The position numbers were made by a program, and so were the translations under genes. A stretch of DNA of 64,000 nt from Microbispora bryophytorum (GTDB taxonomy: Bacteria; Actinomycetota; Actinomycetes; Streptosporangiales; Streptosporangiaceae): contig NZ_VIRL01000010.1 in the NCBI RefSeq assembly GCF_006874465.1, positions 124,001 to 188,000 of the forward strand. The letters run 5' to 3'. Shown piece after piece: positions 8,827-19,849 of this stretch. The notes beneath the pieces were generated by a model. It was not told the origin of the DNA and ran no database searches. It saw nothing but the letters and a program-made list of their open reading frames with translations. Numbering within the stretch: position 1 is the first letter of the stretch; each line of letters begins with the position of its first letter.

Positions 8827-9561
8827 ATGAAGATCGCTGTCATCGGCGGGACCGGCCTCATCGGATCCCGGGTGGTCGAGATCCTGAACACCCGCGGGCA
8901 CGAGGCGGTGCCACACTCGACGTCCACCGGAGTGGACCTGCTCAGTGGGCGGGGCCTGCCCGAGGCGCTGGCGGGCGCCGACGTCGTCGTCAACCTGACG
9001 AAGCCGCGGACCTTCGACGACGCCTCGCCCGCCTTCTTCCGGAAGACGATGGACAACCTGCTGGCCGGCGCCGAGGCGGCCGGCGTCGGCCACGCGGTCA
9101 TCCTGTCGATCGTGGGCGCCGAGCTGGTGCCCGGTTCGGTCTACTACCGTGCGAAGGTGCTGCAGGAGGACCTGCTCAAGGCGGGCCCCGTGCCGTACTC
9201 GATCGTGCGTTCCACGCAGTTCTTCGAGTTCATCGGCACGGTGCTGTCCTGGACCTCCGACGAGCACACGGTCCGCCTGCCCGCCACCCTCATGCAGCCC
9301 ATCGCCGCCGACGAGGTCGCCCGGGCCGTGGCCGACGTCAGCGGGGGCGTCCCGCTGCGCGGCACTCTGGACATCGCAGGCCCCGAGGTCCTCGCGCTCG
9401 ACGAGCTGGGCAGGATCACCCTCGCCGCCCGTGGCGACCACCGCACGGTCGTCACCGACGACAGCGCCGGCATGTACGCCGCCGTCTCGGGCCACGCCCT
9501 CGTCGCCAAGGACGGCGCCGTCATCGCCGGGACCACCTATCGGGAGTGGCTCACGCGCTGA
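8827..9561 (+). CDS. NmrA-like NAD(P)-binding atypical SDR (copy 1)
   Basis: 244 residues. It opens with the nucleotide-binding strand-loop MKIAVIGGTGLIGSRVVEIL, then has DVVVNLT and SIVGAELVPGSVYYRAKVLQ, the region of the reduced Tyr/Lys motif in atypical SDRs. RSTQFFEFIGTVLSW is typical of the NmrA/YwnB-type group in actinobacteria. Such proteins are NADPH-binding oxidoreductases or redox sensors, usually of unknown substrate. A close paralogue lies at 11092. GGGAGGCCAGGAG is the ribosome site. Unlike the paralogue, its upstream DNA shows no convincing (T/C)GTCACA-N16-NGTC promoter. Confidence 0.88.
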   Translation: MKIAVIGGTGLIGSRVVEILNTRGHEAVPHSTSTGVDLLSGRGLPEALAGADVVVNLTKPRTFDDASPAFFRKTMDNLLAGAEAAGVGHAVILSIVGAELVPGSVYYRAKVLQEDLLKAGPVPYSIVRSTQFFEFIGTVLSWTSDEHTVRLPATLMQPIAADEVARAVADVSGGVPLRGTLDIAGPEVLALDELGRITLAARGDHRTVVTDDSAGMYAAVSGHALVAKDGAVIAGTTYREWLTR

Positions 9562-9680: not shown

Positions 9681-9711
9681 TGTCACAGATCGAAACTCTG
9701 CTCTGTCTTCG
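9681..9711 (+). promoter_or_regulatory. ECF41-type promoter of the ltrA-like gene
   Basis: TGTCACA (9681-9687), a 16-base spacer and TGTC (9704-9707) followed by TTCG. The spacing is identical to three other sites in the window. The known ECF41 promoter signature, from memory, is TGTCACA-N16-CGTC. The -10 element lies about 43 bases before the preferred start codon at 9750. Confidence 0.6.
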
Positions 9712-9749
9712 GGGCGGACCGTACGTTGCACAGCGACAGGAGCAGGACC

Positions 9750-10997
9750 TTGCCCCCAGCAGGCACCACGATCCGGATCCGGGTCCGGATGAGCGCCCGT
9801 GCCATCGATGAGCCGCACCGCGTTTCGAGTCAGCTCGAGCTGCTGTTCGATCTCACCTTCGTGGTCGCGGTCGCGGCCGTCACCGCGCAGTTCGCGCACG
9901 ACATCGCCGGCGGTCACGGCCTGGCCGGGCTGGTGCCGTTCCTTCAGGTGTTCTTCGCGATCTGGTGGGCGTGGATGAACTTCACGTGGTTCGCCTCGTC
10001 CTACGACACCGACGACGTCGCCTACCGGCTGCTGACCATGGTGCAGATGGCCGGCGTGCTGGTCCTCGCCGCCGGCGTGCCCGCCGCCGCGAGCCACTCC
10101 GCCTACGGGGTCATCACGCTGGGCTACCTCGTCATGAGAGTCGGGCTCGTCGCCCAATGGCTGCGGGCCGGTCTCGAAGACCCGGCGCGGCGCCGCACCG
10201 CGTTTCGCTACGCCGGCGGCATCGCCTTCCTGCAATTGGGCTGGCTGTCGCGGCTCGTCCTCGTGGAGACGGGAGTCCTGCCCGCGTCCTTCGGCCTGCC
10301 GTTCTTCGTCTGCCTGGCCGCCCTGGAGCTCGCGGTGCCGTGGTGGGCGGAGCGGGCCAGGGCCACCAACTGGCACCCGTACCACATCGCCGAGCGCTAC
10401 GGCCTGTTCACGATCATCCTGCTCGGTGAGAGCGTGCTGGCCGCGAGCAGAGGGGTCGGAAGAGCGCTGGAGGCGGACGCGGTCGGCGGTCCCTTCGTCG
10501 TGATCGCGGTCGCCGGCCTCATCCTGCTGTTCGCTCTTTGGTGGCTGTATTTCCTCGGGCCTGCGGGGGACGGTCTCAGTGATCGTCGTCATCGGTCCTA
10601 TTTGTGGGGATATGGCCACTATGGAATTTTCGCGGCTCTGGCAGCCCTCGGCGCCGGGCTCGAGGTGACGGTGGAGAAGAGCGGGCACGGCGTCGCGGCG
10701 TCGCCGGCGCTCGGCTACGCGGTCGCCGTCCCGGTAGGGGTGTGTCTCGCCCTGCTGTGGGCCGTACACGTGATTGTCGTCGCAGAGCCCATCATGTACC
10801 CGGCCGCCGTGTTGGGGTGCGTCGTCATCGTCCTGTCGCTGCCACTCGCGACGCCCTGGATCGGCGTGGCCGGCATGGTCGCGGCGATCGCGGCCGTCTG
10901 CGTTCTGCTGGTCGCCGTCACGATCTGGACGGCGGCCGCCGGGTCCCGCACCGGAGCACGCCGTCATGACCACGTGACCGATGACGAGTTGACGTGA
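9750..10997 (+). CDS. LtrA-family (low temperature requirement A) multipass membrane protein
   Basis: 415 residues from TTG 9750, which has CAGGAG about seven bases upstream; ATG 9789 is the alternative. Eleven or so hydrophobic segments are evident. The family-defining motifs are LELLFDLTFVVAVAAVTAQF near the N-terminus, IWWAWMNFTWFASSYDTDD, and the central HIAERYGLFTIILLGESVL. LtrA proteins are widespread in actinobacteria; their transported or sensed molecule is unknown. The gene stands between the two NmrA-like paralogues and has its own ECF41-type promoter, so it probably belongs to that stress regulon. The C-terminal tail is short and charged. Confidence 0.88.
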   Translation: MPPAGTTIRIRVRMSARAIDEPHRVSSQLELLFDLTFVVAVAAVTAQFAHDIAGGHGLAGLVPFLQVFFAIWWAWMNFTWFASSYDTDDVAYRLLTMVQMAGVLVLAAGVPAAASHSAYGVITLGYLVMRVGLVAQWLRAGLEDPARRRTAFRYAGGIAFLQLGWLSRLVLVETGVLPASFGLPFFVCLAALELAVPWWAERARATNWHPYHIAERYGLFTIILLGESVLAASRGVGRALEADAVGGPFVVIAVAGLILLFALWWLYFLGPAGDGLSDRRHRSYLWGYGHYGIFAALAALGAGLEVTVEKSGHGVAASPALGYAVAVPVGVCLALLWAVHVIVVAEPIMYPAAVLGCVVIVLSLPLATPWIGVAGMVAAIAAVCVLLVAVTIWTAAAGSRTGARRHDHVTDDELT

Positions 10998-11010
10998 ACC
11001 TGCCGGTCGC

Positions 11011-11041
11011 CGTCACAACCCCGAGGGCTGTCCGGTCTTAG
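11011..11041 (+). promoter_or_regulatory. ECF41-type promoter of the second NmrA-like gene
   Basis: CGTCACA (11011-11017), 16 bases, GGTC (11034-11037) then TTAG. The 17-base string GGCTGTCCGGTCTTAGC covering the -10 side also occurs at the ferritin-like gene promoter near 17760, and GCGACCGG follows it closely at both places. The distance to the ATG at 11092 is about 55 bases. Confidence 0.6.
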
Positions 11042-11091
11042 CTGGCGACCGGGTGACGACGAAGTGACCCGGCGGACAGAAGGAGAGCGCA

Positions 11092-11853
11092 GTGAAGATC
11101 GTGGTAATCGGCGGCACCGGCCTGATCGGGTCCAAGCTGGTGAAGAAGCTGGGCGAGCATGGCCACGAGGCGGTCGCGGCATCGCCGAACACCGGCGTCA
11201 ACACGCTGACCGGCGAGGGGCTCGCCGAGGTGCTGACGGGCGCGAAGGTCGTGGTCGACGTGTCGAACTCACCGTCGTTCGAGAGGGCCGCGGTGCTGAA
11301 GTTCTTCGAGACCTCCACGGGCAACCTGCTCGCCGCGGAGGCGGAGGCCGGCGTAGGTCACCATGTCGCGGTCTCGATCGTGGGAACGGAGCGGATGCCG
11401 GAGAACGGCTACTTCGCAGCGAAGATCGCCCAGGAGCAGCTGATCGAGAAGTCGGGGATCCCGTTCTCGCTCGTGCACTCGACCCAGTTCTTCGAGTTCG
11501 CCCGGGGCATCGCGGACGACGCCACGGTGGACGGCAAGGTGCACATGGCGCCGGTGCTCTTCCAGCCCATCGCGGGCGACGATGTCGCCCAGGCGGTCGG
11601 CCGGACCGCGGTGGGGTCGCCGCTGAACGGCAAGATCGAGATCGCCGGGCCCGAGCAGTCCCTCATGGACGAGTTCTTCCGGCAGGCGCTGATCGCCTGG
11701 GGTGACCCGCGCGAGGTGGTCACCGACCCGCACGCGCGTTACTTCGGCAGCGAGCTGACCGAGCGGTCGCTCGTTCCGCTCAACGACGACGACGCGGCCC
11801 TCGGCACGATCCGCTACCACGACTGGCTCGGCCGCACCTCCACCGGCAAGTAA
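11092..11853 (+). CDS. NmrA-like NAD(P)-binding atypical SDR (copy 2)
   Basis: 253 residues, clearly paralogous to the 8827 gene: MKIVVIGGTGLIGSKLVKKL, then VVVDVSNSPSFERAAVLKFF and HSTQFFEFARGIADDATVDG. The Rossmann fingerprint GGTGLIG is intact and a Tyr-x-x-x-Lys-like YFAAKIAQEQ is present. ECF41 sigma factor genes are commonly accompanied by oxidoreductase, epimerase or carboxymuconolactone decarboxylase genes, and this is the best candidate partner here. It has a good ribosome site (AAGGAGAG) and a promoter identical in layout to three others in the window. Confidence 0.88.
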   Translation: MKIVVIGGTGLIGSKLVKKLGEHGHEAVAASPNTGVNTLTGEGLAEVLTGAKVVVDVSNSPSFERAAVLKFFETSTGNLLAAEAEAGVGHHVAVSIVGTERMPENGYFAAKIAQEQLIEKSGIPFSLVHSTQFFEFARGIADDATVDGKVHMAPVLFQPIAGDDVAQAVGRTAVGSPLNGKIEIAGPEQSLMDEFFRQALIAWGDPREVVTDPHARYFGSELTERSLVPLNDDDAALGTIRYHDWLGRTSTGK

Positions 11854-11940
11854 GCCGACCAGGCGGTTCATCCCCCCGAGGGCGAACGCGATGACCGCGA
11901 TCACTTGCCACACCGCCGCTCCGGCCGCGCCGCAGTACCG

Positions 11941-12031
11941 GCTGCGCCGCGGTCTCGGCTCCGCTGCTGTCCCGGCTGCGCTGCGGGCTCGGCTGCGTTG
12001 CTGTCCCGGCTGCGCTGCTGTCCCGGCTACG
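11941..12031. repeat. Degenerate GCTGTCCCGGCTGCG repeats between genes
   Basis: The gap behind the second NmrA-like gene contains at least four copies of a CTGCTGTCCCGGCTGCG-like word, partly fused with CTCGGCTGCG words. There is no fixed unit length. It could form strong RNA secondary structure after the NmrA-like stop codon, but no clean terminator hairpin is visible. Confidence 0.5.
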
Positions 12032-12103
12032 CAGTGCAGGTCGCCGCGGTCATCGCGTCCCGCCCCTGCCGAGCCATCCGCACAAGACACGGAGAGAGGA
12101 ACG

Positions 12104-12334
12104 ATGGCCGTTCCGAGCGACGAGAACGAATTCCTGCACGAGCTCGAAATCGAGGTCGAGGCGGAGGTGATCCAGGTCGAGTCCAGCCGTCCGGAGGACG
12201 CCGCCGCCCTGCCGGTCACCGACTGGCTCTTCGACCCGGCGGACGCCGAACGCGAGGAGATCGGCCTGCGGGGTCTGCTCGCCGCGGTGGAGGTGCTGGA
12301 AGACGACCTCCGGCCCGGCGATCCCGCCGAGTAG
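12104..12334 (+). CDS. Small acidic protein of unknown function
   Basis: 76 residues from ATG 12104, with GGAGAGAGGA just upstream. The product is strongly acidic (NEFLHELEIEVEAEVIQVES, later FDPADAEREE and EVLEDDLRPGD) with no Cys and no membrane segment. I recognise no family. It converges on the ECF sigma gene, with only six bases between the two stop codons. It occupies the place where the missing C-terminal part of an ECF41 gene would be expected on the other strand. The strong ribosome site and acidic composition favour a real gene. Confidence 0.6.
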   Translation: MAVPSDENEFLHELEIEVEAEVIQVESSRPEDAAALPVTDWLFDPADAEREEIGLRGLLAAVEVLEDDLRPGDPAE

Positions 12335-12340
12335 AGCGGT

Positions 12341-13081
12341 CTAGCAGCGGGCGACACCGACGGCGAGCAGCTCTTCCAGCTCGTCCAGGTCGCCGGTCTG
12401 CGCGGCCGACAGGAACGACCGTACGAGGCGCCGGTGCCCGGTGGTGCTCACCGGGGTGTGCCTGCCGGTGGCGAGGTGGTGGCGGGCGCGCCGCAGGAGT
12501 TGCCGCGCGTGGTCCTCGCTCAGATGGAGGATCTCGGAGATCCTGCGGTAGGGGTAGTCGAAGGCCATGCGCAGCAGATAAACCGCTCGTTCGGCGGAGG
12601 TCAGTCTCTCCAGCAGCAGCCGGATCGCGGCCTCGACCGCCTCATGCCGTTCCGCCGCCGTCTCGGGGCCGACGGAGCGGTCCGTCGTCTCGGGCAGCCA
12701 GGCGCCGGCAGTGGTCTCCCGGCGCCTGCGCGCGGACTGGGCGACGTTGAGGGCGAGCCTGGTGGTGGTCAGCGCGAGGAACGCGGGCGGATCGACGACG
12801 ATCGAGCGGTCGGCGCGGGCCCAGCGCAGCCACGTCTCCTGCACCACGTCCTCGGCCTCGCCCACGTCGTGCAGGACACGCAGGCCGATCGCGAAGAGCC
12901 GGGGTGCGACGCCGGCGAACGCCGAGGCGGCTCCGTCCCGTCTTCCGATCGATCCTTGGCCGGTCCGGTCCGCGTGGTCCCCGTGGTCCCCGTGGTCCCC
13001 GTGGTCCCCGTGGTCCCCGTGGTCCCCGTGGTCCGCGTGGTCCGCGTGGTCCGCGTGCGGGCCCGACAGGTTCATCGTCAC
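12341..13081 (-). CDS. ECF41-type RNA polymerase sigma factor, C-terminally truncated
   Basis: 246 residues from GTG 13081, which has GGAG eight bases upstream; ATG 13108 and ATG 13075 are alternatives. Region sigma2 is seen in FAIGLRVLHDVGEAEDVVQE followed by TWLRWAR, and sigma4 in LTSAERAVYLLRMAFDYPYR followed by RISEILHLSEDHARQLLRRA. Between them stands AGAWLPE, the WLPEP-type linker motif of ECF41 proteins. ECF41 factors normally continue into a SnoaL-like regulatory domain with a DGGG(K/R) motif. Here the protein stops after DLDELEELLAVGVARC, right where that domain begins, and no remnant follows in other frames. The N-terminus has a His-(Ala/Gly)-Asp triplet repeat of about ten units. 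It probably drives the four matching promoters nearby. Confidence 0.85.
   Translation of the reverse strand: MTMNLSGPHADHADHADHGDHGDHGDHGDHGDHGDHADRTGQGSIGRRDGAASAFAGVAPRLFAIGLRVLHDVGEAEDVVQETWLRWARADRSIVVDPPAFLALTTTRLALNVAQSARRRRETTAGAWLPETTDRSVGPETAAERHEAVEAAIRLLLERLTSAERAVYLLRMAFDYPYRRISEILHLSEDHARQLLRRARHHLATGRHTPVSTTGHRRLVRSFLSAAQTGDLDELEELLAVGVARC
12973..13053 (-). repeat. Nine tandem 9-bp units encoding an HGD/HAD repeat
   Basis: Nine near-perfect copies of CGTGGTCC(C/G) in the reading frame of the sigma factor give a His-Gly-Asp/His-Ala-Asp tract at its N-terminus. A perfect 9-bp array is expected to change copy number by slippage without breaking the frame. His and Asp at every third position could bind metal ions. 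Confidence 0.85.
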
Positions 13082-13445
13082 GATCTCGGCTCCGTTCACA
13101 CCCGGCATCCGGCGGTTGCCGCTGTGCTCACGGTCGCGCCCGGAGCCCTCTCATCGCGCCCTGGAGAGCACGTGGTCGACACCCTGGCCCGCATGCCGCG
13201 GGTCCCCAGTGGACCCGGGGCGAACGCCGGGGGCGCGGCAGGGGGCGCGGCCTGGGCCGCTTCGCACCGAGGTCGTCGCGCTGGTCGTTATAGGCAGAGT
13301 CACCCTGACCGCCGATAATGACCAGGCTGATGGTGATTGCCGGGTTGACAGCGGAAAGGTGGCTGCGCGCCGATCCGAGAGGGAGCGCGGGTAGCCTCCT
13401 ACGTCCGGCGGTCGACGGTCAACGGGTGAAGGGTCGGCGGGGGCG
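13082..13445. other. Divergent intergenic region between sigma factor and LuxR regulator
   Basis: 364 bases without a supportable gene. The most promoter-like patch is TTGACA at 13345-13350, facing the LuxR-type gene, without a clear -10. I looked for an ECF41-type promoter facing the sigma gene and found none, so autoregulation is not supported by this region. Confidence 0.45.
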
Positions 13446-14909
13446 GTGCCCATGACAGGCGGAGGTTCCGAGTCGCGGCTTCGTGGGCGGCAGATCGAGT
13501 GCGAGACGCTGGACCGGCTCGTGGCGGCCGTGCAGGCCGGCAACAGCTCGGTCCTGGTCCTGTGCGGCGAGGCCGGCATCGGCAAGACGGCACTGCTGGA
13601 ATACGCGCGAAGCAGCGCGTCCAGCTGCCGGACGGCCAGGGTGGCGGGCGTCGAGTCCGAGATGGAGCTGGCCTTCGGCGGCCTGCATCAGCTGTGCGCC
13701 CCGTTCTTGGATCACCTCGGTCACCTGCCGGGCCCGCAACGCGACGCGCTCGGTACGGCGTTCGGCCTGAGCGCCGGACCTCCGCCCGACCGCTTCCTGG
13801 TCGGGCTCGCGGTGCTCAACCTGCTGGCCGACGTGGCCGGGAAAGGGCCGCTGGTCTGCCTCGTCGACGATGCCCAGTGGCTCGACGAGGTCTCCGCGCA
13901 GACCCTCGCCTTCGTCGCGCGACGCCTGCTCGCGGAGCCGATCGGGCTGGTGCTCGCAGTGCGCGAGCCCCACCTCGAACACGAGCTGACGGGGCTGCCG
14001 CGACTCGACGTGGGGCGGTTGAGCGACGGCGACGCCCGCGCGCTGCTGGACACCGTGATCCTTGGGCGGCTCGACGAGCGGGTCCGTGACCGGATCGTCG
14101 CCGAGGCCCAGGGAAACCCGCTGGCCCTGCTTGAGCTGCCGAAGGGGTTGACGGCCACCGAACCGGCGGGCGCGCTCGGGCGGCCCGGCGTGCGGGCGCC
14201 CGTGGGCCGGATCGAGCAGAGCTTCCTGCGGCGGGTCCGGTCGCTGCCGTCCGAGACACAGCGGCTGCTGCTCGTCGCGGCGGCCGAGCCGGTGGGCGAC
14301 GTGACGTTGGTGACGCGGGCGGCGGAGCTGCTCGAAATCCAGTGGGCCGCGGCCGCCCCGGCCGAAGCGGCGGGGCTGATCACCATCGGTGCCCGGGTGC
14401 GTTTCCGCCATCCCCTCCTGCGCTCGGCGGCCTACCGCGTGGCAGCCCCGCAGGACCGGCAGGACGTCCACCGCGCGCTGGCCGACGCGACCGACGCCCG
14501 GTCGGATCCCGACCGCTGGGCATGGCACCTGGCCAACGCCACGGCCGGCCCCGACGAGACGGTGGCCACCGAGCTGGAGCGCTCCGCCGATCGGGCGCAG
14601 GCGCGCGGAGGCGTCGCGGCGGCGGCGGCGTTCCTGGAGCGAGCGGCCGAACTGACCCCCGATCCCGCCCGCCGAGGCGCCAGGGCGCTGGCGGCTGCAC
14701 GGGCCAAATACCAGGCCCGGCGGCTACGACGCCGCGCTCGAACTGCTGGACGCGGCCGAGCGCGGCTCCCTCGACGATCACCAACTCGCCCAGTCCAGCC
14801 TGCTGCGCGGTCAGATCGTGTTCGCGTCCAGAAGTGCCGGCGCGGCCCTGCCACTGCTGCTCAGAGCCGGGAAGCACCTGGAGCCGCTGGACGCCGGGCT
14901 GGCCCGTGA
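13446..14909 (+). CDS. LAL-type LuxR regulator, N-terminal ATPase part (frameshifted gene)
   Basis: This and the next entry are one gene split by a single extra base. The first 425 or so residues are a STAND/AAA-type ATPase: LRGRQIECETLDRLV, P-loop LCGEAGIGKTALLEYAR (about 39-55), and the Walker B-like PLVCLVDDAQWLDE. Helical repeats typical of large ATP-binding LuxR regulators follow. After LAAARAKYQA (to about 14717) the frame turns into Arg-rich nonsense ending at 14909. Removing one C from the run at 14716-14718 restores GGYDAALELLDAAERG, a conserved LAL stretch. The translation start is GTG 13446 or ATG 13452. It faces away from the ECF sigma gene. Confidence 0.75.
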   Translation: MPMTGGGSESRLRGRQIECETLDRLVAAVQAGNSSVLVLCGEAGIGKTALLEYARSSASSCRTARVAGVESEMELAFGGLHQLCAPFLDHLGHLPGPQRDALGTAFGLSAGPPPDRFLVGLAVLNLLADVAGKGPLVCLVDDAQWLDEVSAQTLAFVARRLLAEPIGLVLAVREPHLEHELTGLPRLDVGRLSDGDARALLDTVILGRLDERVRDRIVAEAQGNPLALLELPKGLTATEPAGALGRPGVRAPVGRIEQSFLRRVRSLPSETQRLLLVAAAEPVGDVTLVTRAAELLEIQWAAAAPAEAAGLITIGARVRFRHPLLRSAAYRVAAPQDRQDVHRALADATDARSDPDRWAWHLANATAGPDETVATELERSADRAQARGGVAAAAAFLERAAELTPDPARRGARALAAARAKYQARRLRRRARTAGRGRARLPRRSPTRPVQPAARSDRVRVQKCRRGPATAAQSREAPGAAGRRAGP

Positions 14910-16221
14910 GACCTACCGTGACGCGCTGTACGCGGCTCTCACCGCAGGCCGTCTGCCGAGCGGCGCCCAGTTGCCGGATGTCGCGGAGGCGGTGCTCGGC
15001 GCGCCGCCGGGGCCTCGGCCGGGGCGTGACGACCTGCTCCTGAACGGCCTGGCCGTGGTGGCCACCGAGGGCTACCCGGCGGGCGCGCCGATGTTGCTGC
15101 AGGCCCTGAGCGCCTTCCGGGCCGAAGCCGTCTCCGCGGAAGAAGGCCTCGGCTGGCTCCCGCTCGCATGCCGCATGGCCCATAACGTCTGGGACTTCGA
15201 CAACTGGTCCGTGCTCTCGGCGAGGCTGGTCGATTTAGCCCGCGAGACGGGAGCTTTGTCGGTGCTGCCGTCGGCTCTGCTGCTGCGCCTGTCGAATCGG
15301 GTCTTCGCCGGCGAGCTCGACGTCGCCGGCACTCTGGCCGCCGAGGCGATGACGATCGGTGAGGTGACGGGCAGCCGCTTCCTCGCCCAGTACGGCGCCC
15401 TGGTGCTCCACCCGTGGAGGGGCCGGGAGGCCGCGACACGTCAGGTGATCGAAGCGATCACCCGGGACAGGGCCCTCGAAGGAGAAGGGAAGGTGTTGAC
15501 CGCCACCCAGTGGGCGAGCGCCGTGCTCTACAACGGCCTCGGCCGCTATGAGGAGGCCTACGTCGCGGCCGAGCGGGGCTGCGAGCACCCGCAGGAGCTG
15601 GGGCTGGCCTCCTCGTCCATGGTCGAGCTCGTCGAGGCGGCCGCCCGGAGCGGACGGCCGGCCCGTGCCGCGGAAACCGCCCGGCGACTCGACGAGATGG
15701 CCCGGGCCGGCGGCACCGACTGGGCTCTGGGCACCTCGGCGAGCGCGCGCGCCCTGGTGAGCGACGGACCGGCCGCAGATGCTCTGTATCGCGAGGCGGT
15801 CGAGCGGCTCGGCCGCACCGAGGTCCGGACGGCGCTCGCCCGCACCCGGCTGCTCTACGGCGAGTGGCTGCGCCGGGAGAACCGCCGCGCCGACGCACGC
15901 GAGCAACTGGGCATCGCGTACGAGATGCTCAGCGACATGGGGGCCGAGGCGTTCGCGGAACGTGCCCGGCGCGAGCTCCAGGCCACCGGCGAGACGGTAC
16001 GCAAACGCACCGTCGAGACGCACACCGCTCTCACCGCCCAGGAAGCGCAGATCGCGCGCCTGGCCGGTGACGGGCTGACGAACCCCGAGATCGGCGCTCA
16101 GCTCTTCATCAGCCCGCACACCGTCGAATGGCACCTGCGCAAGGTCTTCGCGAAGCTCGGCATCGCGTCCCGCAGGCAGATCAGCACCGCGCTGCTCGAA
16201 GGGACCGGGGCCACGGCCTGA
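14818..16221 (+). CDS. LAL-type LuxR regulator, C-terminal TPR and HTH part (frameshifted gene)
   Basis: The downstream half of the broken LAL regulator. Its frame is open from 14719 onward; 14818 is only the first possible internal start (GTG) and has no good ribosome site. The product has TPR-like helical repeats (AAERGCEHPQELGLASSSMV and others). It ends with an intact GerE/LuxR helix-turn-helix: LTAQEAQIARLAGDGLTNPE, then IGAQLFISPHTVEWHLRKVF and AKLGIASRRQ. With the N-terminal part it would make about 925 residues, normal for the family. Whether the one-base insertion is a sequencing error, a recent inactivation or a slippage switch cannot be decided here. A homologous HTH fragment lies at 18944. 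Confidence 0.75.
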   Translation: MFASRSAGAALPLLLRAGKHLEPLDAGLARETYRDALYAALTAGRLPSGAQLPDVAEAVLGAPPGPRPGRDDLLLNGLAVVATEGYPAGAPMLLQALSAFRAEAVSAEEGLGWLPLACRMAHNVWDFDNWSVLSARLVDLARETGALSVLPSALLLRLSNRVFAGELDVAGTLAAEAMTIGEVTGSRFLAQYGALVLHPWRGREAATRQVIEAITRDRALEGEGKVLTATQWASAVLYNGLGRYEEAYVAAERGCEHPQELGLASSSMVELVEAAARSGRPARAAETARRLDEMARAGGTDWALGTSASARALVSDGPAADALYREAVERLGRTEVRTALARTRLLYGEWLRRENRRADAREQLGIAYEMLSDMGAEAFAERARRELQATGETVRKRTVETHTALTAQEAQIARLAGDGLTNPEIGAQLFISPHTVEWHLRKVFAKLGIASRRQISTALLEGTGATA

Positions 16222-16284
16222 GGCCCGGCGGCCGCCGCCGGCCGCCGCCAGCCGCCAGCCGCCGGACGCGCCCGGCCCCGCCTC

Positions 16285-16392
16285 AGTCAGGAACCCGCCG
16301 CTGCCGAGGTGACGTGCATGGCTCAGGAACCCCCGGCCGCCGAGGTGACGTGCACGGCTCAGGAACCCCCTACCGCCGAGGTGACGTGCATG
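16285..16392 (-). repeat. Three 36-bp tandem repeats carrying the P450 C-terminus and stop codon
   Basis: Three units (16285-16320, 16321-16356, 16357-16392) in the P450 reading frame. Each unit encodes (M/V)HVTSA-x-x-GS, a TGA stop and one more codon. The real gene stops in the unit nearest to it (16359-16361); the next two TGAs lie at 16323-16325 and 16287-16289, all in phase. Mismatches between units are few. Confidence 0.9.
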
Positions 16393-17618
16393 GCGACCGG
16401 CCGAAGGGCCAGGCCGTCGGTCCATGCCACCGACTCGGGCGAGTCGGTCAGGCGGAGAGCGGGTCGCCGGGTGACCAGGGCTCTGATCGCCTCGGTGAGC
16501 TCGACCCTGGCGAGACTGGCGGCGAGGCAGCGGTGCGGACCATAACCGAAGGCCACGTGGGGGTTGGGAGGGTGGTCGGTGAAACGGTGGATGTCGAACC
16601 GGCCCGGCTCGGGGAACGCCTGCGGGTCGTGGTTGGCCGCGTTCAGGTTCGGCATGACGACCGTCCCCGCGCTCAGCGAGCCGCCGGGCAGGTCGGTGTC
16701 CGCCGTGATGCGGCGCATGAAGGCGTTGGCGGGCGGCCCGTCGAAGCGCAGGATCTCCTCGACGGCGGTGGCCGTCAGGCCCGGGTCCGCGACCAGCTCG
16801 TCCCACTGGCTCGGGTGGAGGAACAACCGGAAGACGCCTCGGGCGATCATCGAGGCGGTCGTCTCGTAACCGGCCGTGATCAGGGAGAAGACGGTGTTGA
16901 CGAGTTCGCCCTCCGACAGCCGGTCTCCGGAGTCCCTGGCCTGGATGAGCAGGTCGATGAGGTCCTCGCCAGGCGAGAGGCGATGCTGGGCGACCAGCTC
17001 GGTGGCATAGGCCATGAAGTCGCTGTAGCCCTCGTAACGCGCCTGCTCGGTGGCCGTGGAGGTGGTCAGGAACATGTCCGTCCAATGGACGAACTGCTCG
17101 TAGTGGTCCATCGGCACGCCGAGCATCGCGCAGATGACATGGGCGGGCAGCCGCAGCGCGTATCCCTGGACCAGCTCGAAGCGGTCGCCCAGGCCGTCGA
17201 GGAGCTCTTGGGCGATCGCCGCGACGCGGGGACGCCACGGTTCGATTTGGCGCGGGGTGAAGGTGCCCTGCATGATCCTCCGGTAGCGCGTGTGCTCCGG
17301 CGGATCCTGATTGATCAGCGCGTCCGGGTCGTCGTCGATGCCGACGCCGCTCACGAACCGCGGCAACCCGGGGATGCGTAGATTGCGGCTGGATGTGGGC
17401 GAGGCCAGCAGCGCGCGAACGTCCTCGTACCGGACGGCCATCGGGACGCGGTCGCCGCTGGGCATGGTCGCCGGCTCCAACGGCCCCGACTCGCGCCTGC
17501 GGGCGAACTCCGGTGGTGGCGTGGCAAGCGGCCCCGGCACGATATCCGGCCCGACGCCGGTCTCGATGGTGGGCCCGATGGTGGGCTCAGTCCCGTGCGG
17601 ATCCAGCTCGGCGGTCAT
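16359..17618 (-). CDS. Cytochrome P450
   Basis: 419 residues, normal length for a bacterial class I P450. The I-helix oxygen-binding motif is AGYETT, the K-helix ExxR is EEILR, and the heme loop FGYGPHRCLAASLAR supplies the Cys thiolate. Upstream QDPPEHTRYRRIMQGTFTPR is the usual C-helix region. It resembles the CYP105/107 type found in actinomycete secondary metabolism and xenobiotic turnover. No ferredoxin or reductase gene is adjacent. The gene is divergent from the ferritin-like gene at 17878, with 259 bases between starts. Its last ten codons and stop are tandemly repeated downstream. Confidence 0.92.
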   Translation of the reverse strand: MTAELDPHGTEPTIGPTIETGVGPDIVPGPLATPPPEFARRRESGPLEPATMPSGDRVPMAVRYEDVRALLASPTSSRNLRIPGLPRFVSGVGIDDDPDALINQDPPEHTRYRRIMQGTFTPRQIEPWRPRVAAIAQELLDGLGDRFELVQGYALRLPAHVICAMLGVPMDHYEQFVHWTDMFLTTSTATEQARYEGYSDFMAYATELVAQHRLSPGEDLIDLLIQARDSGDRLSEGELVNTVFSLITAGYETTASMIARGVFRLFLHPSQWDELVADPGLTATAVEEILRFDGPPANAFMRRITADTDLPGGSLSAGTVVMPNLNAANHDPQAFPEPGRFDIHRFTDHPPNPHVAFGYGPHRCLAASLARVELTEAIRALVTRRPALRLTDSPESVAWTDGLALRPVAMHVTSAVGGS

Positions 17619-17743
17619 TGCAACCCCTTCCGGTCCGGGTCGCCCGGGGTGCGGCCTACGCGGAACGTACGAAATGCCGCACCATCCGTCAACGGACGGA
17701 TTCCGAGGAGGAGCTCATAGACCGCGAAGACGTTCGCGGCGGC

Positions 17744-17774
17744 TGTCACAAGTCCGGCGGCTGTCCGGTCTTAG
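17744..17774 (+). promoter_or_regulatory. ECF41-type promoter of the ferritin-like gene
   Basis: TGTCACA (17744-17750), 16 bases, GGTC (17767-17770) and TTAG. The region repeats 17 bases of the promoter at 11011 exactly (GGCTGTCCGGTCTTAGC). It lies about 105 bases before the ATG, giving a fairly long untranslated leader. Confidence 0.6.
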
Positions 17775-17877
17775 CCTGCGACCGGCCGGCACCCCAAGGT
17801 CCGGCACCCCCTGAGACCCATGCCGCCGGGCGGTCATCTCGCACAACGACCCCTTCTGCCAGTGAGGTAGGACTTCG

Positions 17878-18939
17878 ATGAAGGATCTGACACCCCAGAG
17901 GACTGTGGCTACCGGGCCGGCGCCGATCACCACTCTCGACGATCTGCGTGAGCACCTTCAGTGGGCGGTCGAGCTGGAACACGCGACGTTGCCGCCGTAC
18001 CTGTGCGCGCTCTACTCCCTGGAACCGGAGCACAATCCGGAGGCCGCGGAGGTGGTGGGCAGCGTCTTCGCCGAGGAGATGCTGCACCTGGCGCTGGCCG
18101 CGAACCTGCTCAACGCGGTGGGCGGCCGGCCGCGCCTCGACATGCCGGAGATGTTGCCGCCGTATCCCCGGCGGCTGCCCCACAGCGACCTGGAGCTGTC
18201 GTTGCTCCCGTTCGGCCCGCAGGCCCTGGAGATGTTCCTGCGACTGGAACGGCCGGCCCCGCCCGGCGCGCCTGCGGAGGCCGACGGCTACGAGACGATC
18301 GGGCAGTTCTACGCCGCGATCGAACAGGGTCTGCGCCACCTGTGCGAGCGGCTGGGCGAGCGGGAGGTCTTCTGCGGCGACCCCGCGCGCCAGGTGAGCG
18401 GCGGCCGTTTCCGGCACACCGCGGGGGGCTTGTTCGCGGTGGAGGATCTGGAGTCGGCGCTGGGCGCGCTGAGGGAGATCGTCGAACAGGGCGAGGGCAC
18501 GGCCCGGGGTGAGGTCTGGGACGGGGACCAGGACATCTTCCACCCCGATCGGGACGAGGTCGCCCACTACTACCGCTTCCGGGAGCTCCAGCTCGGCCGG
18601 CGCTACCGGCGTGGCGACACCCCGCAGTCCGGGCCGACCGGCGAGACGATCTCGGTGGACCCTGCCGCCGTGCGTCCGATGCGGCCCAATCCGCGACTGT
18701 CCGACCACGCCCCGGGCAGCGCGATCCGCACCGCCCAGGACGGGTTCAACCGCGTCTACTGCACGCTGTTGAACCAGCTGGAGCAGGCCTTCAATGGCGA
18801 CCCGAAACTGCTCGGGGCCGCCGTCGGCACGATGTACGCGCTCAAGGCCCAGGCCGACGCCCTGATGCTGATGCCCGACGTCGACGGCACCACGGCCAGC
18901 CCCACCTTCGGCTACGTGCCGCCGGAGTCCCGCTCATGA
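17878..18939 (+). CDS. Ferritin-like domain protein (VioB/iminophenylpyruvate-dimer-synthase-like fold)
   Basis: 353 residues. The N-terminal half has the four-helix di-metal signature LDDLREHLQWAVELEHATLP (Glu ligands) followed by VVGSVFAEEMLHLALAANLL with a second Glu and ExxH. This matches the ferritin-like domain found in VioB, RebD and StaD relatives and in many stand-alone actinobacterial proteins. A further helical half contains WDGDQDIFHPDRDEVAHYYR and ends with LGAAVGTMYALKAQADALML. The family is usually annotated without a known reaction. Location beside a divergent P450 suggests an oxidative role, and its promoter matches the ECF41 type. The start is ATG 17878, with a weak AGGTAGGA ribosome site. 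Confidence 0.82.
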   Translation: MKDLTPQRTVATGPAPITTLDDLREHLQWAVELEHATLPPYLCALYSLEPEHNPEAAEVVGSVFAEEMLHLALAANLLNAVGGRPRLDMPEMLPPYPRRLPHSDLELSLLPFGPQALEMFLRLERPAPPGAPAEADGYETIGQFYAAIEQGLRHLCERLGEREVFCGDPARQVSGGRFRHTAGGLFAVEDLESALGALREIVEQGEGTARGEVWDGDQDIFHPDRDEVAHYYRFRELQLGRRYRRGDTPQSGPTGETISVDPAAVRPMRPNPRLSDHAPGSAIRTAQDGFNRVYCTLLNQLEQAFNGDPKLLGAAVGTMYALKAQADALMLMPDVDGTTASPTFGYVPPESRS

Positions 18940-18943
18940 GCGT

Positions 18944-19156
18944 CTACCGCGCTTCGGAGTCGAGCTCGGCGAGCGCGGTCTTCAGCTCCGCACGCCCTCT
19001 GATGCCGAGCTTCGTGAAGACCTTGCGCAGGTGGTATTCGGCGGTGCGCGCGCTGATGAACAGCCGCGCGCCGATGTCCCGGTTGGTGAGTCCCTCACGC
19101 GCGAGGCGCGCCACGTTGAGCTCCTGCTCGGTGAGCCGCGCCGACGACCCCTGCAC
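18944..19156 (-). CDS. LuxR-type helix-turn-helix fragment
   Basis: 70 residues from GTG 19156, consisting of little more than a GerE helix-turn-helix: LTEQELNVARLAREGLTNRD, then IGARLFISARTAEYHLRKVF and TKLGIRGRAELKTAL. It closely matches the HTH of the LAL regulator ending at 16221. In-frame sequence upstream still reads SASGETPRVRVQG, which looks like the linker that precedes the HTH in a LAL protein, then loses similarity. I read it as the surviving 3' end of a second LAL gene, though a free-standing HTH protein cannot be excluded. It begins only five bases beyond the ferritin-like gene stop, on the opposite strand. Confidence 0.55.
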   Translation of the reverse strand: MQGSSARLTEQELNVARLAREGLTNRDIGARLFISARTAEYHLRKVFTKLGIRGRAELKTALAELDSEAR

Positions 19157-19202
19157 GCGTACGCGCGGGGTCTCGCCGCTCGCGCTCAGCCCGCCAAAGC
19201 CG

Positions 19203-19232
19203 AAGGCGGGAACCCGATCCGGTTCCCGCCTT
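19203..19232. terminator. Perfect 12-bp-stem hairpin, likely bidirectional terminator
   Basis: AAGGCGGGAACC (19203-19214), loop CGATCC, GGTTCCCGCCTT (19221-19232). The stem is perfect and lacks a long T-run, as usual for actinobacterial terminators. It sits between the LuxR fragment and the 3' end of the cupin gene, so it would stop leftward transcripts from the cupin promoter. Confidence 0.65.
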
Positions 19233-19334
19233 CTCCGCTCCCGCTTCCCCTGCTCCCGCTTTCCCTGCTCTCAAGGGTCCGCCGTGCGGGCGAGTGCGAG
19301 CAGATCACGGACGAGCGCGGTCAGTGCGACCTGG

Positions 19335-19769
19335 TCATGAACGCGGCGCCCGACGGTCCCGCCGAGCTTCCAGCTCCTCCGGGCCGACCACGGTCAGCAT
19401 CGGCTGCCCGGGCGCGCAGAACATCGTCACCACGAACGCCGACTCCTCGTCGGCGAGGTGGTTGCCGTCCTGGTAGTGGATCACGTCGCCGCCGGGCTCC
19501 CAGAACGTCTCACCGGCCCGGACGACCCGCGCGGGCTCGCCTTCGAGCTCGAAGTCCATCGCCCCCTTGACCACGAATCCGTACACCGGCCCGGAGTGGC
19601 GGTGAGGCGGCGTGCCGGCGCTGTCCGGCGGCAACGTCACCAGGATCGTCATCGCCTCGGCCCCCTCCGGCACTTGCGGGGCCTCCGGAACGTTGCCGAC
19701 CATGTCGATCTCCGGCGGCGGACCGCTCTTGCCGTAGTTCTCATAGTGGTGAGCGTGATCGGTGCTCAT
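19335..19769 (-). CDS. Cupin-domain protein
   Basis: 144 residues from ATG 19769, behind AAGGAGG. A single cupin barrel is evident: TPPHRHSGPVYGFVVKGAMD holds the GxxxxHxH-type metal His pair and the conserved turn, and GETFWEPGGDVIHYQD holds the second motif. It ends TMFCAPGQPMLTVVGPEE. Small mono-cupins of this type include quercetinase-like dioxygenases and ligand sensors, so the reaction is open. A clean ECF41-type promoter lies 54 bases upstream, which places it in the same putative regulon as the LtrA-like, NmrA-like and ferritin-like genes. It is divergent from the FAD hydroxylase at 20052. Confidence 0.85.
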   Translation of the reverse strand: MSTDHAHHYENYGKSGPPPEIDMVGNVPEAPQVPEGAEAMTILVTLPPDSAGTPPHRHSGPVYGFVVKGAMDFELEGEPARVVRAGETFWEPGGDVIHYQDGNHLADEESAFVVTMFCAPGQPMLTVVGPEELEARRDRRAPRS

Positions 19770-19818
19770 CGGGCCTCCTTCGCGACACGGTGGCCGACTG
19801 GTTCCGGCCGTACACCAG

Positions 19819-19849
19819 CTCAGACAAGGCAGCTTCCCGATGTGTGACA
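19819..19849 (-). promoter_or_regulatory. ECF41-type promoter of the cupin gene
   Basis: On the minus strand: TGTCACA (19849 down to 19843), 16 bases, TGTC (19826-19823) then TGAG. The layout is identical to the three plus-strand sites at 9681, 11011 and 17744. The -10 element is about 54 bases before the start codon at 19769. Confidence 0.6.

What the first reader, a model, noticed from the sequence alone, without database searches (positions are those of the whole stretch)
9681..19849. Four promoters with identical (T/C)GTCACA-N16-NGTC layout around an ECF41-type sigma gene
Seen: sites at 9681 (LtrA-like), 11011 (NmrA-like), 17744 (ferritin-like) and 19849 on the minus strand (cupin), each with exactly 16 bases between the two elements. 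Two of them share a further 17-base string. Each sits 43-110 bases before a start codon. Known: ECF41 factors use TGTCACA-N16-CGTC (from memory). Inferred: the sigma factor at 12341-13081 drives a local regulon of oxidoreductase, LtrA, di-iron ferritin-like and cupin genes, wider than the usual single target gene.
Basis: partly seen in the sequence, partly recalled or inferred. Interest (0 to 1): 0.78.

Follow-up and report, generated by a model that had tools for sequence, protein, structure and literature searches.

The report
Conserved promoters near stripped sigma factor
Four matching gene switches in an actinobacterium are real and conserved in related species; they seem to be shared by a normal sigma factor elsewhere in the genome and a local copy that has lost its built-in brake, and this can be tested directly.

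Summary
The four (T/C)GTCACA-N16-NGTC sites are at the stated positions and beyond chance (4 found, 0.39 expected). Footprinting supports them as promoters: relatives carry the site before the same genes (NmrA 30 of 30, LtrA 22 of 30; cupin 15 of 15, ferritin-like 7 of 22).

The sigma gene at 12341-13075(-) lacks the SnoaL extension that marks ECF41. It belongs to a clade of 33 SnoaL-less ECF41 offshoots (100/96.9) that also lost linker residues said to contact that domain: the Tyr is kept in 1 of 33, the last Pro in 0 of 33, against 46 and 47 of 49 full-length rows.

Two natural experiments bear on who uses the promoters. Five same-genus genomes have lost or decayed this sigma yet keep three or four sites in slightly relaxed form. 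Six other genomes have the short form without a detected full-length sister and still hold 8-16 such sites. Best reading: one multi-promoter ECF41 regulon served by a full-length sigma in trans (contig C47) and this brake-less local paralogue. There are no expression data.

The parts
9681..9707 (+). ECF41-class promoter site before LtrA gene (TGTCACA-N16-TGTC)
   Evidence: site before 22 of the 30 best LtrA genes, own included, and 7 of 7 in the sigma-ortholog loci
11011..11037 (+). ECF41-class promoter site before NmrA-like gene (CGTCACA-N16-GGTC)
   Evidence: 30 of the 30 best NmrA genes, own included, have it 79-104 bp before the start
17744..17770 (+). ECF41-class promoter site before ferritin-like gene
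   Evidence: 7 of 22 distinct upstreams, own included
19823..19849 (-). ECF41-class promoter site before cupin gene
   Evidence: 15 of 15 distinct upstreams, own included, 14 of them at 78-81 bp
12341..13075 (-). SnoaL-less ECF41 offshoot sigma factor (ORF opens at 13108; favoured ATG 13075)
   Evidence: NF007214 positions 6-200 of 293 only; short clade; start
9792..10997 (+). LtrA-family membrane protein, likely target gene
   Evidence: Pfam LtrA 6e-91
11092..11853 (+). NmrA-like NAD(P)-binding protein, likely target gene (the 'COE' type of ECF41 target)
   Evidence: Pfam; footprint
12104..12334 (+). 76-aa acidic conserved protein, no Pfam match; in relatives often next to NmrA or the ferritin-like gene
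17878..18939 (+). ferritin-like protein (PF12902), likely target gene
19335..19769 (-). cupin, likely target gene
13446..16221 (+). LuxR-type (LAL) regulator divergent from the sigma gene; reading frame broken near 14720 in this assembly
   Evidence: two ORFs; one open frame of 929-947 codons in 6 relatives against 504 here
8827..9561 (+). second NmrA-like gene, without a site
   Evidence: 1 of 9 upstreams has a site
16359..17618 (-). cytochrome P450, neighbour without a site

Best explanation
The four sites are promoters of one small ECF41-subgroup regulon (LtrA; NmrA, perhaps read on into the 76-aa gene; ferritin-like; cupin) that is old in the family. Two sigma factors of the same subgroup can use them: a full-length, SnoaL-bearing ECF41 encoded elsewhere (G000:C47:90762-91610) and the local gene, a paralogue whose SnoaL brake is gone. 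Shown: the sites, their conservation, the domain loss, purifying selection, and retention of sites in genomes with only one or the other sigma. Inferred: that both sigmas bind these sites, that the short one is active without the signal that the SnoaL domain senses, and that its activity is set by its expression, possibly through the divergent LAL regulator, which is missing or a remnant where the sigma is.
For: Sites and footprints: (a site in 696 of 20000 random 320-bp stretches of such loci, 3.5%). Short clade of 33 rows, support 100/96.9, inside a 75-row clade (SH-aLRT 99) that holds the full-length sister and none of 14 other own paralogues. Linker Tyr in 1 of 33 (a gappy row) vs 46 of 49; last Pro 0 of 33 vs 47 of 49 (which corrects one search's cut-off list). 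dN/dS about 0.25-0.41 in 7 comparisons. Full-length only: G187 and G206 keep four sites with no local sigma found, G097 four with a decayed sigma, G155 and G200 three (A or G at base 7, spacer 15-17 allowed); each has the sister at 84-93% identity. Short form only: in G169, G201, G230, G245, G268, G280 the best full-length matches are 46-50% and lie outside the clade; they hold 14, 14, 8, 10, 11, 16 subgroup matches, with sites before at least one named target gene at each locus. Mean matches per genome 10.5 with the short sigma (n 21), 5.9 with the full-length only (36), 3.1 with neither (31), control about 0.8. Laboratory parallel: ECF41 of B. licheniformis cut to aa 1-204 is about 20-fold, of R. 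sphaeroides to 1-206 about 120-fold more active (PMC3426412, passages).
Against: No transcript, binding or reporter data. Site counts follow gene clusters that travel with the sigma, so they are not independent proof of action, and within the window's own genus the means barely differ (6.0 vs 5.4). A seventh short-only genome, G119, keeps the sigma but only 2 matches. No site of this type was found before the short sigma gene in the rows tested, apart from one 17-spaced site in L111, so no sign of autoregulation. Of 120 NmrA genomes 31 showed neither sigma at the cut-offs used. In the short-only genomes only the best few full-length matches were placed in a tree. The natural stop could not be mapped exactly onto laboratory truncation 204 (reference sequence not held); version 192 was less active and 167 dead. 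The LAL link rests on direct divergence in 7 of 26 loci, one of them a fragment, and joint loss in 5 genomes.
Confidence: 0.57

Rival explanations
1. The full-length ECF41 in trans (C47) is the only driver; the local short sigma is vestigial, on its way to loss, or has other targets.
For: Sites survive after loss or decay of the local sigma in five same-genus genomes; LAL neighbour broken here; NmrA presence goes with the full-length sister (84 of 120 NmrA genomes have it; 8 of 92 sister genomes lack NmrA).
Against: The short sigma is under purifying selection, its clade spans several families, and six genomes with the short form and no detected sister keep 8-16 matches.
Confidence: 0.25
2. 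One reading: the local sigma alone drives a local regulon.
For: Proximity; more sites in genomes that carry it.
Against: G187 and G206 have four sites with no local sigma found, G097 with a decayed copy.
Confidence: 0.09
3. One or more of the other ECF41 paralogues of this genome use the sites.
For: 14 further loci besides the window gene and C47 match the SigJ family profile at 218 bits or more; 48 genome sites of the loose pattern against 9 for the reversed control.
Against: Canonical ECF41 -10 is CGTC (PMC3426412) whereas these are TGTC/GGTC; of the own paralogues placed in the tree only C47 and the window gene fall in the subgroup clade.
Confidence: 0.07
4. The sites bind a conventional transcription factor rather than a sigma factor.
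For: No promoter has been mapped here.
Against: Two-part layout, 16-17 spacing, steady distance to starts and match to the mapped ECF41 -35 element.
Confidence: 0.02

Closest known systems
ECF41 sigma factors (SigJ of M. tuberculosis, Ecf41Bli, Ecf41Rsp; Wecke 2012, PMC3426412)
   Same: sigma2-sigma4 core, WLPE in the linker, NmrA-type neighbour, TGTCACA -35 with 16-base spacing; a cupin neighbour is also on record in four of their cases
   Different: most of the SnoaL domain missing, linker Tyr and last Pro lost, -10 is (T/G)GTC, four promoters in one locus; LtrA and ferritin-like targets not named in the sections read
Laboratory truncations Ecf41Bli 1-204 and Ecf41Rsp 1-206 (passages)
   Same: core plus the first part of the extension; rest of the SnoaL domain absent
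   Different: natural, conserved in many species, with matching changes in the linker; activity untested; exact end point not aligned
Full-length sister in this genome, G000:C47:90762-91610
   Same: same subgroup clade; same promoter type at C47:89701 before an SDR gene
   Different: keeps YVGPWLPEP, DGGG and NPAKI motifs and a complete extension

Membership tests
ECF41 sigma factor | sigma2 and sigma4 domains | tested here: met
   Pfam Sigma70_r2 and r4_2; SigJ 5xe7 E 3.5e-26 over its residues 10-201
ECF41 sigma factor | C-terminal extension of about 100 aa (SnoaL-like) with conserved motifs | tested here: not met
   stops before DGGG; profile match ends at 200 of 293; model ends after two helices of the extension, mean pLDDT 79.3, pTM 0.55
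ECF41 sigma factor | complete linker motif (WLPEP; YVGPWLPEP) | tested here: not met
   TAGAWLPET here; in the 33-row clade Tyr kept in 1, last Pro in 0
ECF41 sigma factor | phylogenetic place among ECF41 cores | tested here: met
   groups with the full-length sisters, apart from 14 other own paralogues; the tree holds no non-ECF41 outgroup
ECF41 sigma factor | neighbouring COE gene (NmrA/epimerase, oxidoreductase, decarboxylase) | tested here: met
   NmrA-like 11092-11853
ECF41 sigma factor | starts transcription at TGTCACA-N16-CGTC | not testable with these tools
   needs transcription assays
ECF41 target promoter | -35 TGTCACA, spacer 16 +/- 1 | tested here: met
   one of the four has C at the first base; some relatives have TGTCACG and 17
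ECF41 target promoter | -10 CGTC | tested here: not met
   TGTC or GGTC in 4 of 4; the two mapped ECF41 promoters have TGTT and CGTC, so the base varies

The most novel reading that the evidence does not exclude
A lineage of ECF41 sigma factors has shed its fused SnoaL regulator and the matching linker contacts, in effect fixing in nature something like the hyperactive laboratory truncation, and works as an expression-controlled (perhaps LAL-controlled) twin on the regulon of its full-length sister, letting the regulon grow to several or many promoters; the tree needs at least four changes between long and short forms, so similar losses probably recurred in actinobacteria.
Probability: 0.42. 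Interest if true: 0.68.

Novelty: new variant of a known kind. Interest (0 to 1): 0.56.

Why it matters
How a one-component sigma factor is held in check by a fused domain is not settled. A conserved clade that lost most of the domain and its contact residues, beside genomes that hold the full-length form only, the short form only, or both on the same promoters, gives a ready comparison. It also questions the view that ECF41 factors have one target each.

Tried and rejected
Considered and rejected: sites as chance; CGTC-type generic ECF41 sites as the same class (-10 differs); C82:319048 as a further target (it lies on the minus strand just before a plus-strand transporter-like ORF and at the end of a plus-strand ORF; not counted); the cupin as ChrR-like anti-sigma (Cupin_7 hit 2e-4, below its cut-off; nothing further tested); the short sigma as a sequencing artefact (orthologues in many genomes end at or near the same place); all short forms as one clade (rejected, p-AU 0.0015).

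Led nowhere: paper searches for a natural SnoaL-less ECF41 listed no title or abstract start that reports one; one held papers name ECF41. I saw passages of five (PMC3426412, with sections 20, 21 and 25 in full; PMC8999054; PMC7730460; PMC8103513; PMC9205884), none whole. Goutam 2017, Wu 2019 and Casas-Pastor 2021 are not held, so prior description there cannot be excluded. Mapping of the stop onto Ecf41Bli numbering failed for want of its sequence. The structure model (pTM 0.55) was not searched against fold libraries.

Dropped rows: one search used 88 of 297 genomes (the six genera holding a short sigma). The trees left out five rows (four near-duplicates, one distant paralogue) and 15 of the 52 named loci translated (frameshifted, cut, repeats of rows already in, or distant); the other 28 loci were not in the trees. 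One search dropped hits of low identity, late start, identical upstreams or under 330 bp of upstream; one search had counted one such cupin (L126, 37 bp left) as a miss. One search looked at the 30 best of 120 NmrA and of 81 LtrA genomes. In one search a seventh LAL row (L125, at a locus end) gave no usable figure. On checking, one search had printed only the six commonest letters per column; one search shows one Tyr among the 33 where I had first read none.
Full report
Observation. Genome-wide the looser GTCACA-N17-GTC has 48 matches against 9 for the reversed control, so the class is common here: the genome (7.85 Mb, 137 contigs) has 15 loci that match the SigJ/ECF41 profile at 218 bits or more besides the window gene, 11 of them over the curated cut-off. 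A stricter subgroup pattern, GTCACR-N10/11-CYRYCYKGTC, gives 5 matches and 0 controls in the own genome. Reading the list, these are three of the window sites, C47:89701 and one that I did not follow up (C47:52486); the LtrA site misses the strict pattern by one base.

Are they promoters? In 25 loci around orthologues or near relatives of the window sigma, fetched from family members, plus the window, a slightly relaxed site stands before LtrA in 7 of 7 genes, NmrA in 9 of 9, and cupin in 7 of 8 with a full start (the eighth locus ends 37 bases upstream) (coordinates). It is absent before the sigma gene in all rows but one (a 17-spaced site in L111), present in 3 of 20 LAL rows, and absent before the P450 and the FAD enzyme of the window. 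A wider draw, the window's own gene included each time: NmrA 30 of the 30 best, 79-104 bp before the start; LtrA 22 of the 30 best; cupin 15 of 15 distinct upstreams, 14 at 78-81 bp and one at 182; ferritin-like 7 of 22 and the 76-aa gene 4 of 22, which fits their lying downstream of NmrA in one operon in many of these loci (inference); second NmrA 1 of 9. Random 320-bp stretches of such loci hold a site in 3.5%, real sites included. The -35 element is the one mapped for ECF41 promoters; the published -10 consensus is CGTC, and the two mapped promoters have TGTT and CGTC (PMC3426412, passages and section 25). In the window it is TGTC or GGTC after a CTG(T/C)-like run, and so in most orthologous sites; some relatives have TGTCACG and a 17-base spacer.

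The local sigma. Its core matches ECF41 (only solved relative at E under 0.001: SigJ, 5xe7), but the SigJ profile is matched only to position 200 of 293. Orthologues stop at or soon after the same place, just before the DGGG motif of full-length forms; some carry unrelated tails, in L125 an open frame of over 100 further residues. A maximum-likelihood tree of 88 cores puts 33 short forms (Streptosporangiaceae, Kribbella, Blastococcus, Paractinoplanes) into one clade, support 100/96.9; 39 short forms in all need at least four changes of state, and a single clade for all of them is rejected (p-AU 0.0015). The linker motif YVGPWLPEP, which a paper on ECF56 describes as linked to the distal NPDKL motif in ECF41 (PMC7730460, passage), has lost its Tyr (kept in 1 of 33, a gappy row; 46 of 49 full-length) and its last Pro (0 of 33; 47 of 49), whereas five of the six other short forms still have the Pro and two the Tyr. 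dN/dS against seven orthologues is about 0.25-0.41. A model of the 202-residue core (mean pLDDT 79.3, pTM 0.55) shows two helices left of the extension at block pLDDT of about 70-88 and a linker under 50. Pfam SnoaL_2 is weak even in the full-length sister (E 0.013, below its cut-off), so the domain call rests on the alignments and the SigJ profile.

Who uses the sites? In ten loci from other genomes (L194-L198 and L200-L204) a full-length sister with DGGG or DGNG lies in or beside the LtrA/NmrA/cupin/76-aa/ferritin-like cluster. Nine of the ten have a site before NmrA; L198 has no NmrA in the stretch fetched but has sites before LtrA and the 76-aa gene. LtrA lacks a site in three (L195, L197, L202). 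In the window's genome the sister lies on C47, convergent with an SDR gene that has the same type of site. In the same genus, G187 and G206 show no sigma or LAL match between the 76-aa gene and the P450 yet keep all four sites; G097 has sigma and LAL remnants and all four sites; G155 has a sigma remnant, no ferritin-like match and three sites; G200 has no short sigma at the locus, a LAL remnant, and three sites (cupin not seen in the 14 kb fetched). These counts allow A or G at the seventh base and a spacer of 15-17: several LtrA sites are 17-spaced and the cupin sites read GTCACG. All five have the C47-type sister at 84-93% identity. Conversely seven genomes with the short sigma show no such sister: their best full-length matches are 46-50% identical, and those placed in a tree fall outside the subgroup clade (the best one or two per genome, not every match). 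Six of these hold 8-16 subgroup matches, the seventh, G119, only 2; at their loci the site stands before LtrA (G169, G230, G245) or NmrA and cupin (G201, G268, G280). Over 88 genomes of the six genera concerned the mean number of matches is 10.5 with the short sigma (21), 5.9 with the sister only (36), 3.1 with neither (31), control about 0.8; shuffling within genera reaches the observed sum in 0 of 20000, and in 4 of 20000 among the 50 genomes with the sister. Relatedness within a genus is not removed by this test, and in the window's own genus the difference is small (6.0 vs 5.4). Full-length calls used a cut-off of 1e-54 on a search that scored ten candidates per genome; 31 of 120 NmrA genomes had neither sigma by that measure.

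Mechanism. I take the regulon to be served by both sigmas. In the laboratory, ECF41 proteins cut within the extension are far more active than whole ones, while complete removal kills them and an intermediate cut is less active (PMC3426412). The natural stop leaves the first part of the extension, so an active, unrestrained sigma is the likely result; this is inference. With the brake gone, control would fall to expression. The LAL regulator stands divergent from the sigma gene in 7 of 26 loci (one a fragment) and is missing or a remnant in the five genomes that lost the sigma. In this window its frame is broken near 14720 while six relatives have 929-947 open codons, which may be early decay or a sequencing error.

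Against known systems. The promoters are ECF41-class with a variant -10. The local sigma is an ECF41 descendant that fails the defining extension and the complete linker motif, so I do not file it as a standard member. NmrA and cupin neighbours of ECF41 are already on record (PMC3426412, section 20); the multi-promoter locus, the LtrA and ferritin-like targets and the conserved SnoaL-less clade are not mentioned in the passages I read, and my searches listed no report of them. Three key papers are not held, so earlier mention cannot be excluded.

Noticed in passing
12104-12334 (+): Conserved 76-aa acidic protein without any Pfam match; 24 distinct sequences from as many loci share a core FL.EL..E.E.E....WL.DP.D.ERE.I.LRGL..A.E.LE; often beside NmrA or just before the ferritin-like gene.
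   Followed up: partly
12967-13057: Ten copies of a 9-base tandem repeat inside the sigma ORF, coding for a His/Asp-rich (HGD)n stretch at its N-terminus; no such array in the six orthologue leaders printed, though L118 has a short His-rich stretch.
   Followed up: partly
13446-16221 (+): LAL regulator split into two overlapping frames near 14720; one long open frame in six relatives.
   Followed up: partly
18965-19189 (-): Remnant of the C-terminal LuxR part of a second LAL regulator between the ferritin-like and cupin genes.
   Followed up: no
L233, L238, L239, L191, L192, L193: Further short ECF41 forms outside the main short clade (three in Actinomadura), pointing to repeated loss of the domain.
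   Followed up: partly
L043 (G000:C43:1022-1684): Another ECF41 of this genome whose SigJ-profile match ends at 228 of 293 and whose tail no longer aligns, perhaps a frame break.
   Followed up: no
L119, L120, L121: In three genomes with only the short sigma the NmrA and cupin sites have drifted to (T/C)GTCACG with a 17-base spacer.
   Followed up: no
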